Shown piece by piece: positions 3,281 through 8,092 of a DNA stretch of 12,243 bases. This stretch comes from Chitinophagales bacterium (GTDB lineage: Bacteria > Bacteroidota > Bacteroidia > Chitinophagales > UBA2359): positions 1 through 12,243 of the forward strand of contig JAHDDN010000129.1 in NCBI GenBank assembly GCA_020629335.1, given 5' to 3'. Position numbers and translations under genes: made by a program. The notes under the pieces were generated by a model, which saw only the letters and a list, made by a program, of their open reading frames with translations, was not told the origin of the DNA and did not search any database. Within the stretch, counting starts at the first letter, position 1. The number at the start of each line of letters is the position of its first letter.

Positions 3281-3497
3281 GGGGCTTCCCTGATTATATT
3301 TTGGCCATCGATATGTAGGGGCCGTACCGATGTGTCGGCCCAACGATGGCCAAAATATAATCAGGTCGGGCTGTTCGCTCTTATATGGCTATGTTGCTTC
3401 TGCTCTGCTAAGTGCTGCTTGTCTCTAAGGAGCCTTCGCATCACTAAGCGCCGCAAGTCGCATCATATACGCCATATACCGCTGCCATCCCTAAGCC
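3281..3497 (+). repeat. Dispersed structured repeat, family 2, copy 1 (+ orientation)
   Basis: This 217-bp stretch begins GGGGCTTCCC and ends CATCCCTAAGCC. The same element lies in reverse orientation at 7870-8092. It contains a perfect 22-bp inverted repeat (3289-3310 with 3344-3365) around a 33-base loop, and the loop holds a smaller GGGCCG/CGGCCC hairpin. A second 8-bp stem pairs TATATGGC (3382-3389) with GCCATATA (3471-3478). It starts 2 bp after the stop of the outer-membrane protein gene and could act as a terminator or mRNA-end structure. No target-site duplication is visible. An open frame through it (3332-3580) is not conserved in copy 2 and is not a gene. Confidence 0.85.
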
Positions 3498-3589
3498 AGA
3501 TCAAGCCTTTACTTTGGTATAAGGGATGCTTGGGAAGTAATGAGATTGCTATTGCCAAAAAGGAGTTGGTAAGGAATTAGCCAAATTGA

Positions 3590-3749
3590 GAACTCATTTA
3601 AAGTTTTATGGTGATGCTGAAAATAAGCTATTTTTTCGTAATTCAAGGCATTTTTGAGGTGCATAGCAGCGCTACGGGCCGATAAAATAACGCAGAAGTA
3701 CGGAAAAATAGCCATTTTCTAAGCCAGCAGAAAAACTTTAAACGAGTTC
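3590..3749 (+). mobile_element. MITE-like 160-bp foldback element, family 1, copy A
   Basis: The element is bounded by GAACTCATTTAAAGTTTT (3590-3607) and AAAACTTTAAACGAGTTC (3732-3749), terminal inverted repeats matching at 17 of 18 positions. It is flanked by the direct repeat TGA (3587-3589 and 3750-3752), which looks like a 3-bp target-site duplication. By eye it differs from copy B (5434-5593) at about 16 of 160 positions with no gaps. Inverted complementarity extends imperfectly beyond the termini, leaving an asymmetric centre around AAGGCATTTTTGAGG. No transposase is encoded, so it would be a non-autonomous element. It sits about 130 bp upstream of the ammonia-lyase gene. Confidence 0.85.
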
Positions 3750-3816
3750 TGATACAAAAAATGAGCTTTTAAGTTAATAAGTCATTATTTATTATTCCTT
3801 ATGTAAATGAATTAGT

Positions 3817-3824
3817 TATTTTTG
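3817..3824 (+). promoter_or_regulatory. Candidate Bacteroidota -7 promoter element for the ammonia-lyase gene
   Basis: TATTTTTG fits the Bacteroidota -7 consensus TAnnTTTG and lies about 55 bp upstream of the GTG start, just downstream of repeat copy A. A convincing -33 TTG at the usual spacing is not present, so this is a moderate-to-weak call. It falls in the unique-sequence leader (3753-3878) between the repeat and the gene, where a promoter would be expected. Confidence 0.4.
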
Positions 3825-3878
3825 CATCTTGTACTCAAATTAGCCTTCTTATAATAGACATAAAAAACTAACAATACA

Positions 3879-5435
3879 GTGCAGAAACTGACTATAGGAA
3901 ATAAGTTACTTGATTTAAACGACTGTTATCGTATTCTTTTTAGGGAATCGTCTATCGATTTAGATGAGGGAGCGATGCTGCAAGTGAAAGATTGTTTTTC
4001 TTTTTTGAGTGAATTTTCTCAAAATAAGGTGATTTATGGTGTGAATACAGGTTTTGGTCCTATGGCACAGTATATTATTCCTAAAGAACAATTGAAAAGC
4101 TTACAAATAAACCTTATTCGGAGTCATGCTGCTGGTAGTGGTGACTTAGTAGATGATCGCTATATTAGGGCGACGATATTAGCAAGGCTTAATAGCTTAC
4201 TACAAGCAAAGTCAGGAGTGCATCCATCTACCGTTCAATTATTGGCTATATTACTCAATGCAGAAGTATATCCTTGTATTTATGCGCATGGAGGAGTGGG
4301 TGCAAGTGGTGATTTAGTACAATTAGCGCATCTAGCTCTAAGTATGATAGGAGAGGGGGAAGTAAAGTATAAAGGAGAACTAAGAGATACTGCGGAGGTA
4401 TATGAGGAGCTAAATATAGAGGCACTTTCAATTCATATAAGAGAAGGCATTGCTTTAATCAATGGTACATCTGCTATGACAGGAGTGGGGATTGTCAACT
4501 TGATACAAGCGAAGAAACTATTGAAGTGGAGTATTTGGGCTTCATCGGCGATCAATGAGATTGTAGAGTCTTATGACGATCACTATTCAGCCCCTTTGAA
4601 TGAGGTGAAAAGGCATCAAGGCCAGCAACAAGTTGCTGCTGAAATGAGGGCTATTTTAAAGGATAGCCAACTATGTAAAAAACGAGCAGACTTTTTGTAT
4701 CAAGCTAATGGAGCCAATGGCCAAGATCACAGAGGAAAAATAGCGGATAAGGTACAAGAATACTATTCAGTTAGGTGTGTTCCTCAAATACTTGGGCCTG
4801 TATGGGATAGCTTAGAGTATACAGAAAATGTATTAATCAATGAGTTAAACTCGGTCAATGATAACCCAATAGTAGATGTAAAAAACAAAGATGTTTATCA
4901 TGGAGGGAATTTTCATGGAGATTATATTTCTATGGAGATGGATAAGTTAAAAATTGCGATAAGTAAGCTATCCATGCTTTGTGAGCGCCAATTAAATTTT
5001 CTCTTGAATGATAAACTCAACTCTAAGCTGCCTCCATTTGTTAATTTAGGGGTTATCGGCTTAAATTTTGGTATGCAAGGGGCTCAATTTACCGCTACAT
5101 CGACAGTTGCGGAGAATCAAAGCCTTTCTTATCCAATGTATTTGCATAGTATTCCGAATAATAATGATAATCAGGATATAGTAAGTATGGGATTCAATGC
5201 AGCATATTTAGCTAAAAAGGTGATTGACAACACATTTGAAGTTTTGGCTATTGAGTTAATGACCATTATACAGGCGATTGATCATCTTCAAATAGTCTCT
5301 TCCCTTTCTTCTAAATCGAAGTCGATCTACTTTGAATTAAGGGCTATAGTTCCTATATTTGAACAAGACAGTATTAAATATAGAGAGATTAAAAAAATGA
5401 AAGAGTTTTTAATGAATTCGCCGATCAATTCATGA
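3879..5435 (+). CDS. Tyrosine ammonia-lyase (HAL/PAL/TAL family)
   Basis: This 518-residue aromatic amino acid ammonia-lyase would convert L-tyrosine to 4-coumarate, the aryl starter of flexirubin-type pigments. The MIO cofactor triad is Ala142-Ser143-Gly144 within GGVGASGDLVQLAHL. The inner-loop Tyr53 lies in YGVNTGFGPMAQY, and NNNDNQDIVSMG provides the conserved C-terminal active-site block. The selectivity position reads Ser82-His83 (LIRSHAAG), as in histidine ammonia-lyases. However, I recall the characterised F. johnsoniae TAL having the same RSH, and the two proteins resemble each other throughout, so TAL is favoured over HAL by sequence and by context. The GTG start is forced: an in-frame stop lies at 3861 and the next ATG is at codon 33. 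The stop codon is made partly by the repeat at 5434 (see findings). The gene is bracketed by two same-orientation copies of one element. Confidence 0.88.
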   Translation: MQKLTIGNKLLDLNDCYRILFRESSIDLDEGAMLQVKDCFSFLSEFSQNKVIYGVNTGFGPMAQYIIPKEQLKSLQINLIRSHAAGSGDLVDDRYIRATILARLNSLLQAKSGVHPSTVQLLAILLNAEVYPCIYAHGGVGASGDLVQLAHLALSMIGEGEVKYKGELRDTAEVYEELNIEALSIHIREGIALINGTSAMTGVGIVNLIQAKKLLKWSIWASSAINEIVESYDDHYSAPLNEVKRHQGQQQVAAEMRAILKDSQLCKKRADFLYQANGANGQDHRGKIADKVQEYYSVRCVPQILGPVWDSLEYTENVLINELNSVNDNPIVDVKNKDVYHGGNFHGDYISMEMDKLKIAISKLSMLCERQLNFLLNDKLNSKLPPFVNLGVIGLNFGMQGAQFTATSTVAENQSLSYPMYLHSIPNNNDNQDIVSMGFNAAYLAKKVIDNTFEVLAIELMTIIQAIDHLQIVSSLSSKSKSIYFELRAIVPIFEQDSIKYREIKKMKEFLMNSPINS

Positions 5436-5593
5436 ACTCATTTAAAGTTTTATAATGAAGCTGAAAATTAGTTGTTTTTTCGTAGTTCAAGGCATTTTTG
5501 AGGTGCATAGCAGGGCTACGGACCGAAAAAATAACGAAGAAATACGGAAAAACAGCCATTTTCTAAGCCAGTAGGAAAACTTTAAATGAGTTC
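5434..5593 (+). mobile_element. MITE-like 160-bp foldback element, family 1, copy B
   Basis: The ends are GAACTCATTTAAAGTTTT (5434-5451) and its exact complement AAAACTTTAAATGAGTTC (5576-5593), a perfect 18-bp terminal inverted repeat. The direct repeat CAT on each side (5431-5433 and 5594-5596) is the expected 3-bp target duplication. It has the same length and orientation as copy A. Its first two bases, GA, complete the TGA stop of the ammonia-lyase gene. It fills nearly all of the 175-bp gap before the ketoreductase gene, leaving only 17 bp. No protein is encoded. Confidence 0.9.
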
Positions 5594-5610
5594 CATTAGT
5601 AGAATAGTAT

Positions 5611-6354
5611 ATGAGCACAGAAAAAAAGAAATACGCACTAGTAACAGGCGGGTCTAGAGGAATAGGTAGAGCCATTTGCTTGCGTTTAGCAGAGATGGGA
5701 TATGATATTATTATCAACTTTCATTCTAATGAAGAGGCGGCCAGTGAAACTCAAGGTTTAATAGCAGAAAAGGGAAGAATAGCAAGCTTAATGCCTTTTG
5801 ATGTAGCGGATAAGGAGGCTGTTAACAAAAGCATTGCTAATTGGCAAAATGAAAATGAAGATGCGGTCATAGAGGTGGTTGTGAATAATGCGGGTGTTCG
5901 TAAAGATAACCTCATGGTGTTCATGAAAGATGAAGAGTGGGATCAGGTATTAGATATACATTTGGGAGGCTTCTATTATGTTACGAAAGCTCTATTAACA
6001 GGGATGGTGCGTAATAAGTATGGCCGTGTAGTGAATGTTGTTTCTTTGTCGGGCTTAAAAGGCTTGGCAGGTCAAACTAACTACTCTGCGGCTAAAGCTG
6101 GTATTATAGGGGCATCAAAGGCATTAGCTCAAGAGATAGGCCGCAAAAATATTACGGTTAATTGTGTGGCACCTGGCTTTATCAAAACTGATATGACAGC
6201 AGATATAGATGAAAAAGATTTTAAAAAGATGATTCCGATGAGGCGTTTCGGTAGAGCAGATGAAGTAGCTGCTGTAGTAGGTTTCTTGGCTTCAAGAGAA
6301 TCTTCTTATATAACAGGAGAGGTGATCTCTGTAAATGGAGGGCTTTATACATAA
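5611..6354 (+). CDS. FabG-like 3-oxoacyl-ACP reductase (SDR), aryl-polyene ketoreductase
   Basis: This 247-residue classical short-chain dehydrogenase/reductase would reduce the 3-keto group of each extended acyl-ACP with NADPH. The glycine-rich cofactor motif TGGSRGIG is at residues 12-19 and NNAG at 92-95. The catalytic Ser145, Tyr158 and Lys162 sit in the VSLSG and YSAAK blocks, and PGFIKTDM at 188-195 follows. The Asn of the usual SDR tetrad is His117 here (LDIHLGG), a substitution also seen in other SDRs. Length and motifs match FabG, and the operon position points to the KR of the pigment system (ApeQ-like role) rather than housekeeping fatty-acid synthesis. It stops 4 bp before the ketosynthase ATG, so the two are probably co-transcribed. 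A promoter of its own would have to lie in repeat copy B. Confidence 0.88.
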   Translation: MSTEKKKYALVTGGSRGIGRAICLRLAEMGYDIIINFHSNEEAASETQGLIAEKGRIASLMPFDVADKEAVNKSIANWQNENEDAVIEVVVNNAGVRKDNLMVFMKDEEWDQVLDIHLGGFYYVTKALLTGMVRNKYGRVVNVVSLSGLKGLAGQTNYSAAKAGIIGASKALAQEIGRKNITVNCVAPGFIKTDMTADIDEKDFKKMIPMRRFGRADEVAAVVGFLASRESSYITGEVISVNGGLYT

Positions 6355-7579: not shown

Positions 7580-7868
7580 TAACAATGAATGATGAACAAT
7601 AAACAATGAATGTTTAGTCTGATTAAATTTCTACCCTATGGGTTCAATTTATTAGTTCTTGACAGCCCAAGTTTTGTCTTTTTACGATTCTACTTCGTTA
7701 TTTTTTCGTTTCGTAGCCCTGCTATGGGCCTCAAAAATGCCTTGTATAATCGCAAAAATCCTACAACTTAACTGTCAGAAACTTATAAACTGAACCACTA
7801 TGAGTACTTTTATTGAAAGAAAAAGTTAGCAGTTCATAGTTATTCCGTTCATTATTCATTGTTATTTA
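7577..7868. repeat. Inverted repeat pair around repeat copy C
   Basis: The left arm at 7577-7597 (TAATAACAATGAATGATGAAC) and the complement of the right arm at 7847-7868 agree except for one extra base and one substitution. The left arm overlaps the ketosynthase stop codon TAA. AACAATGAATG-like units are partly repeated just inside it, with AACAATGAATG at both 7581 and 7603. The pair encloses family 1 copy C and abuts family 2 copy 2. It may mark the ends of a further element or be simple-sequence AATGAAC repeats. Confidence 0.6.
7641..7796 (-). mobile_element. MITE-like foldback element, family 1, diverged copy C (inverted)
   Basis: On the minus strand this 156-bp stretch contains the centre of copies A and B: CAAGGCATTTTTGAGG, then CATAGCAGGGCTACG, then GAAAAAATAACGAAG. 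The termini differ from A and B. They form their own 25-bp inverted repeat (7641-7665 with 7772-7796, about 21 of 25 matching) starting GGTTCA. No clean target duplication is seen; CTATG occurs near both ends but one base off register. It is best read as a separate subfamily sharing the core. Confidence 0.7.
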
Positions 7869-7869
7869 C

Positions 7870-8092
7870 GGCTTAGGGATGGAAGTGGTATGTGGCGTTT
7901 ATGAGGCTGCTTACGGAACTTAGGACCATGCAGGCTGGCCCGCAGGGCAGACAAATGGGCCTTAGTGTAGTAGCAGACACATAGCCACATAAGAACGGAC
8001 AGCCCGACCCTATTATTTTTTGGCCATCGTATGTAGGGGCCGTACCGATGTGTCGGCCCAACGATGGCCAAAAAATAATAGGGGAAGCCCCC
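7870..8092 (-). repeat. Dispersed structured repeat, family 2, copy 2 (- orientation)
   Basis: This is the 223-bp reverse-oriented relative of 3281-3497, running from GGCTTAGGGATGG to GGGGAAGCCCCC on the + strand. The large stem is a perfect 22-bp inverted repeat (8008-8029 with 8062-8083) around a 32-base loop. The second stem pairs TATGTGGC (7889-7896) with GCCACATA (7984-7991). Both stems are kept relative to copy 1 although their bases differ. The loop reads the same on the + strand as in copy 1, so it is flipped relative to the rest of the element. Short open frames here on the minus strand are repeat sequence, not genes. Confidence 0.85.

What the first reader, a model, noticed from the sequence alone, without database searches (positions are those of the whole stretch)
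5425..5613. A mobile element supplies the stop codon of the ammonia-lyase gene, and the pre-insertion gene junction can be reconstructed
The TGA stop of the ammonia-lyase is T5433 (last base of the target duplication CAT) plus GA, the first two bases of the element. Removing 5434-5593 and one CAT copy gives TCA TTA GTA GAA TAG TAT ATG. The lyase would then continue three codons (Leu-Val-Glu), stop at TAG (5605-5607), and the ketoreductase ATG would follow after 3 bp. That matches the 1-4 bp gaps elsewhere in the operon and independently supports both the element's boundaries and its recent insertion. The insertion trimmed the enzyme by three residues and put a strong foldback between two pigment genes.
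Basis: seen in the sequence. Interest (0 to 1): 0.72.

Follow-up and report, generated by a model that had tools for sequence, protein, structure and literature searches.

The report
Jumping DNA hairpin ends pigment gene
A 160-letter non-coding mobile DNA hairpin has jumped into the last few codons of a flexirubin-type pigment gene and now provides most of that gene's stop signal; it belongs to a new family of a well-known kind of element, and other copies end other genes in other bacteria.

Summary
The element at 5434-5593 has perfect 18-bp inverted ends and a CAT/CAT target duplication, and supplies two of the three bases of the lyase stop TGA (5433-5435). Removing it restores SPINS-LVE-TAG, 3 nt, ATG.

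I identify it as a MITE (non-autonomous miniature transposon). A second window copy (3590-3749) is flanked by TGA/TGA. Of 41 complete copies (2 here, 39 in other genomes), 29 have an identical 3-bp duplication and none extends to 4. A 928-bp IS5-family insertion sequence with near-identical ends, in a genome carrying many copies, is the likely type of mover. The lyase and reductase are FlxA and FlxB of flexirubin synthesis.

Two of three reading frames would restore a stop before the reductase, so the reconstruction is modest proof. 'Recent' is not shown. No close empty-site relative could be fetched (best lyase 63%), so the lost LVE stays inferred; that tail is variable, so its loss is probably harmless.

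Beyond the finding: three other copies end upstream reading frames, two of them inside the native TAA stop, and the hairpin's central core is at least as conserved as the terminal repeats.

The parts
5434..5593 (.). MITE copy 2, 160 bp, a single long hairpin
   Evidence: Perfect 18-bp inverted ends, 90% identical to copy 1; hairpin z -8.7; 74-77% full-length relatives in two other genomes
5431..5433 (.). left target duplication CAT
5594..5596 (.). right target duplication CAT
5433..5435 (+). present flxA stop TGA: T of the target plus GA of the element
5605..5607 (+). inferred former flxA stop TAG, in frame once the element and one CAT are left out
5495..5520 (+). conserved apical core TTTTTG-N5-CATAGC-N3-GCTACG of the hairpin
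   Evidence: 0 mismatches to the family pattern; pattern in 20 of 199 genomes, reversed control 0
3590..3749 (.). MITE copy 1, upstream of flxA, flanked by TGA (3587-3589 and 3750-3752)
   Evidence: 16 differences from copy 2; ends 17/18 complementary
3879..5435 (+). flxA, flexirubin tyrosine ammonia-lyase, GTG start, 518 aa
   Evidence: NCBIfam NF053541 812.7 bits, cut-off 700; Pfam PF00221
5611..6354 (+). flxB, flexirubin SDR ketoreductase
   Evidence: NCBIfam NF053542 392.3 bits, cut-off 340; start shared with an 89% relative

Best explanation
5434-5593 is a MITE, a transposase-less miniature related by its ends to an IS5-family insertion sequence. An IS5-type transposase acting in trans moved it and joined it at staggered 3-bp cuts (CAT), inside the third codon before the original TAG of flxA. 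Its first bases GA, after the T of the target, made a new TGA, so FlxA lost a non-conserved tail (Leu-Val-Glu by reconstruction) and the flxA-flxB spacer grew from 3 to 175 nt. The insertion was tolerated because it hit the dispensable end of a gene. Shown: boundaries, duplication, inverted repeats, stop codon, family, and a candidate partner IS in another genome. Inferred: mobilisation by that IS type, the ancestral tail, neutrality for the enzyme, and any effect of the hairpin on flxB expression.
For: Both window copies have inverted ends and 3-bp duplications of different sequence. 29 of 41 complete copies have identical 3-bp duplications, none longer, offset controls mean 1.6, maximum 5. 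In genome G121 the end pattern (1 mismatch) occurs 18 times forward and 21 times reverse, control 0 and 1. G121 carries three copies of a 928-929-bp IS whose right end differs from the window's end at 1 of 18 bases; two of the three are flanked by ATT/ATT; its 305-aa frame passes the NCBIfam IS5 cut-off (119.3 against 110) and the Pfam cut-offs of PF13340 and PF01609. Hairpin pairing is kept by compensatory changes at 22 of 46 pairs in 20 sequences. Three further copies end an upstream frame. The present 175-nt spacer exceeds the longest of 39 measured gaps between adjacent flxA and flxB (137 nt); the reconstructed 3 nt falls among the 18 of 39 with 11 nt or less.
Against: No empty site in a close relative could be fetched. 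No transposase lies in the window and the window's genome is not held, so the partner IS is inferred from another genome; one of its three copies lacks a duplication. 12 of 41 MITE copies lack an identical duplication. None of 119 listed homologues ends in LV or LVE, and no measured gap is exactly 3 nt. 15 of those 39 relatives have gaps of 37-137 nt without this element being sought there, so long spacers also arise otherwise.
Confidence: 0.9

Rival explanations
1. The element began as a MITE but is now kept for function: as RNA its hairpin protects the flxA 3' end or damps flxB, a domesticated regulator inside a pigment operon.
For: A very stable hairpin stands between two co-directed genes; pairing is kept by compensatory changes across the family; a second copy lies upstream of flxA.
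Against: Pairing and core are shared by copies at unrelated sites in other genomes, so their conservation belongs to the element and not to this operon. No terminator-like site and no excess of promoter-like sites in 3500-5700. No orthologous cluster with the element was found (0 of 18 genomes with lyase loci).
Confidence: 0.08
2. It is a REP/RAYT-type palindrome and not an IS5-linked MITE.
For: Single-hairpin shape; GTAG-containing palindromes do exist elsewhere in the window.
Against: REPs are described as 20-40 bp (abstract in the listing of PMC3733652). This is 160 bp with 3-bp duplications and shares its ends with an IS5-type IS.
Confidence: 0.02

Closest known systems
MITEAba12 / ISAba12, Acinetobacter (PMC6382973; passages read)
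   Same: Short MITE of near-constant length (111-114 bp) whose ends match a co-resident IS; stop codons in all six frames; one copy fused to a gene's end gives a premature stop.
   Different: 9-bp target duplications, 113 bp, Moraxellaceae; the gene it ends was truncated by 398 residues. In the window the loss is 3 inferred residues.
BrickBuilt, MITE239, MITEPgRS of Porphyromonas gingivalis (PMC4596501; passages read)
   Same: Bacteroidota MITEs whose ends match IS5-family ISs (ISPg1, ISPg3, ISPg4, ISPg9).
   Different: Different end sequences, internal tandem repeats, variable duplications; there the ends are alike and the interiors not.
QMITE2 in enhC, Coxiella (PMC5896051; passages read)
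   Same: A MITE at the 3' end of a gene changes its C-terminus and stop.
   Different: 7-11-nt direct repeats, 150-190 bp; there it extends the protein by 33 residues in one strain.
MITECca01, Cardinium (PMC9769881; passages read)
   Same: Bacteroidota MITE that spread from a parental IS.
   Different: Its likely parent ISCca4 is of the IS982 family.
flx cluster of Chitinophaga pinensis (PMC3992019; passages read)
   Same: FlxA tyrosine ammonia-lyase and type II FAS-like genes.
   Different: No mobile element is mentioned in the passages seen.

Membership tests
MITE | terminal inverted repeats | tested here: met
   18/18 in copy 2, 17/18 in copy 1
MITE | target duplication of fixed length | tested here: met
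   3 bp in 29 of 41 copies, 4 bp in 0 of 41
MITE | dispersed multi-copy, short, non-coding | tested here: met
   2 copies in 12 kb; 15 matches to the whole element in G121; 160 bp, no transposase frame
MITE | ends match an autonomous element | tested here: met
   17 of 18 bases with one end of the 928-bp IS of G121; in another genome, as the window's own is not held
MITE | mobilised in trans | not testable with these tools
   needs a transposition assay
IS5 family (the partner IS in G121) | IS5-type DDE transposase | tested here: met
   NF033580 119.3, cut-off 110; PF13340, PF01609
IS5 family (the partner IS in G121) | short target duplication; 3 bp in some subgroups (recalled) | tested here: met
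   ATT/ATT in 2 of 3 copies, third AGT/CAT
FlxA / FlxB | score above the curated NCBIfam cut-off | tested here: met
   812.7 against 700 and 392.3 against 340
REP/RAYT palindrome | 20-40-bp palindrome (abstract) without target duplication (recalled) | tested here: not met
   160 bp with 3-bp duplications

The most novel reading that the evidence does not exclude
This is one branch of a superfamily of about 160-bp hairpins whose apical core (TTTTTG-N5-CATAGC-N3-GCTACG) and length are held fixed while the outer ends are exchanged between different IS5-type specificities (TTTAAAC, TCTTGAC and GAAGTG end types, perhaps also a TGACAG type as at 7660-7780). The core would then be a working part, for example a site bound by a host protein or folded during transposition, that makes the element portable between transposases. 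Ends that begin GA, with a following TTTAA, would act as a built-in stop that lets copies land in gene ends and even rebuild a split stop codon.
Probability: 0.2. Interest if true: 0.55.

Novelty: new member of a known kind. Interest (0 to 1): 0.33.

Why it matters
It gives a clean, checkable example of a miniature transposon editing a gene's end without destroying it, with three parallel cases elsewhere. It also names a likely partner IS for an element family that my paper searches did not find in print. If the fixed core is a working part, the family would let one ask what besides the terminal repeats a MITE needs. For the pigment operon itself the consequence is probably small.

Tried and rejected
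Empty-site relative: the lyase in genome contigs (18 loci, 50-58%), in 100 genomes of the family of G121 (best 62%) and in 291 of the order of G008 (best 62%), and the reductase in 397 genomes of the family of G121 (8 matches at the limit set, best 62%) gave no close relative. The 89% reductase P0122 is on a contig that no tool here could fetch. Plasmid records: no match to copy 1 with its flanks.

Viral contigs with the 18-bp end: 7 stretches, each a single match; the whole element was not found in them. Core pattern with GGCATTTTTGAGG: 0 in viral contigs. Rfam: no match in the window at the gathering threshold. The element in 18 genomes with lyase loci: 0 (which itself notes that an empty answer without a known positive shows nothing).

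Strict core pattern in 395 Bacteroidota genomes: G121 (9 places) and G089 (1). The G089 hit lies shortly after a tRNA-like sequence and I saw no inverted ends, and the reversed control also hit 2 genomes, so I count it as chance. In one search some of the 20 genomes have a single 1-mismatch hit; at least one of those (L139) showed no inverted ends.

Special targeting of stop codons: 4 of 41 copies (window included) end an upstream long frame and 2 of them split a TAA. I judge, without a computation, that tolerance of insertions only near gene ends explains this. Stops lie within 12 nt of the edge in 47% of end-and-phase combinations against 29% for shuffled ends (maximum of 500 shuffles 37%), but the copies share their ends, so this is one fact about the repeat and not 82 independent ones.

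Limits and dropped rows. One search looked only for end pairs 140-175 bp apart, so the length range it gives is bounded by that window; the wider look (whole 3-kb loci) paired ends only at 159-161 bp or 928-929 bp apart, apart from weak stray end matches. Of 68 loci, 14 lacked my search motif and 1 had no reductase found; L117 duplicates L008; whether another gene lies in the gaps above 1 kb was not checked. One search used the 120 listed lyases of 8000 scored. The conservation figure used 16 of 23 copies after removing near-duplicates. Those 23 leave out core-selected loci, but 16 of the 23 are the window copies or were found by BLAST with the whole element; the 7 found by ends alone all carry the core (6 perfectly, 1 with 3 mismatches in 12). 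In one search eight minus-strand loci were read on the wrong strand; one search replaced them. No structure was predicted.

Full report
What was checked. The lyase frame ends TCA-TGA with TGA at 5433-5435; G5434 and A5435 are the first two bases of a 160-bp element. The element's ends are perfect 18-bp inverted repeats and CAT flanks it on both sides. Taking out the element and one CAT gives SPINS-LVE-TAG, then TAT, then the reductase ATG. The coordinates in the finding are right.

What the genes are. The lyase scores 812.7 on NCBIfam FlxA (cut-off 700) and the reductase 392.3 on FlxB (cut-off 340), so this is a flexirubin-type operon. FlxA activity as a tyrosine ammonia-lyase was shown in Chitinophaga pinensis (PMC3992019, passages). 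The window is a single contig with no genome held. Its closest lyases are 60-63% identical; one reductase is 89% identical but on a contig I could not fetch.

What the element is. A second copy at 3590-3749, 90% identical (16 differences), is flanked by TGA/TGA. In an unnamed Bacteroidota genome, G121, full-length copies exist at 74% identity, and another genome, G470, has one at 77%. Across the loci I scanned there are 41 distinct complete copies. Of these, 29 have an identical 3-bp flanking repeat and none a longer one, against a mean of 1.6 (maximum 5) in 132 offset controls; 40 of 41 are 157-162 bp long, within a search window of 140-175 bp. In G121 three copies of a 928-929-bp IS carry the same kind of ends and a 305-aa frame that passes the NCBIfam IS5 transposase cut-off; two of the three have ATT/ATT. 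This is the anatomy of a MITE and its likely partner.

How good is the reconstruction? The boundaries are secure for reasons independent of the reading frame. The frame argument itself is modest: two of three frames in the flank reach a stop before the reductase. Gaps between flxA and flxB in relatives support it in kind. Of 52 distinct loci measured, 13 have more than 1 kb between the genes; the other 39 have gaps from -4 to 137 nt, 18 of them 11 nt or less, 6 of 14-25 nt and 15 of 37-137 nt. The present 175 nt is outside that range and the reconstructed 3 nt inside it, though no relative has exactly 3 (15 further loci gave no measurement there). The tail: 0 of 119 other listed lyases end in LV or LVE. 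Marinigracilibium ends NNSPINNL, which resembles the reconstructed N-SPINSLVE and shares its first restored residue, but its gap is 92 nt. Tail lengths from the column of residue 498 run from 16 to 45 in 120 sequences (window 21, reconstructed 24), and the FlxA profile match ends at residue 512. I therefore accept the loss of three residues as likely, and expect no strong effect.

Parallel cases. Besides the window, three copies of the 41 end a long upstream frame: a biotin/lipoate ligase family gene in G121 (PF03099; T|GA as in the window), a family 2 glycosyltransferase gene in G121 (PF00535; TAA at +12) and an acetyltransferase-like frame in G798 (TA|G; my reading of the translation, not scanned). 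Joining their flanks suggests that two insertions fell inside a native TAA and rebuilt a stop (TGA, TAG) with the protein unchanged, and one turned ...KDL into ...KDELV. One of the two split-TAA cases (L084) has a one-base mismatch between its duplications (ATT/ACT), so there the empty site is less sure. Ends that begin GA after a target that often ends in T make TGA readily; this is a property of the repeat.

An unexpected feature. The hairpin's apical core is found, with up to 1 mismatch, in 20 of 199 genomes of the family of G121, up to 45 times in one genome, while the reversed control is 0 in all 199 rows. Copies with different outer ends (GAACTC-TTTAAAC, GAACTC-TCTTGAC and GAAGTG-TTTAAAC types) share it. 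In 16 non-redundant copies not selected by the core pattern, mean pairwise identity is 0.84 in the core, 0.79 in the terminal 18 bp and 0.60 in the arms. Pairing along the hairpin is kept by compensatory changes at 22 of 46 pairs. Usually one expects the ends to be the best kept part (recalled; in Porphyromonas, MITEs share ends but not interiors, passages). Why the core is held is open.

Effect on the operon. No terminator-like site and no excess of promoter-like sites were found in 3500-5700. A stable hairpin between two genes could affect translation coupling or mRNA decay; nothing here tests it. 'Recent' is not shown.

Known or new. MITEs that alter gene ends or carry stops in all frames are known (PMC5896051 and PMC6382973; passages). 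MITEs with IS5-type ends in Bacteroidota are known (PMC4596501; passages), and a different Bacteroidota MITE (MITECca01) is traced to an IS982-family element (PMC9769881; passages). I found no paper with these repeat strings or on this family. So: a new family of a known kind.

Noticed in passing
window 7660-7780: A third hairpin with the same 26-base core (minus strand 7712-7737, 0 mismatches) but different ends (TTGACAGCCCAAGTTTTG / CAACTTAACTGTCAG) and no clear duplication; the core matches many copies in G841, which have GAACTC ends.
   Followed up: partly
window 3281-3365 and 8008-8091: Two near-identical palindromes containing TATGTAGGGGCCGTACCGATGTGTCGGCCCA between inverted GGCCATCG arms, with further inverted pairs 3343-3424/7949-8030 and 3444-3497/7870-7923; REP-like and possibly another mobile family.
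   Followed up: no
window 3817-3824: A Bacteroidota-type -7 motif TATTTTTG (motif recalled) lies between MITE copy 1 and the flxA start and may be the operon promoter.
   Followed up: no
L037, L038, L059, L060, L062 (G121): GAAGTGG-ended copies almost identical to one another in both orientations; L037, L038 and L059 have identical 3-bp duplications, L060 does not, L062 was not scored; this points to recent movement in that genome.
   Followed up: partly
L205, L209, L211-L214 (G841): Near-identical copies of the GAACTC-TCTTGAC type at different sites, a recent burst in that genome.
   Followed up: no
L080, L095 (G121): In the partner IS the transposase frame's stop codon TAA lies inside the terminal inverted repeat.
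   Followed up: no
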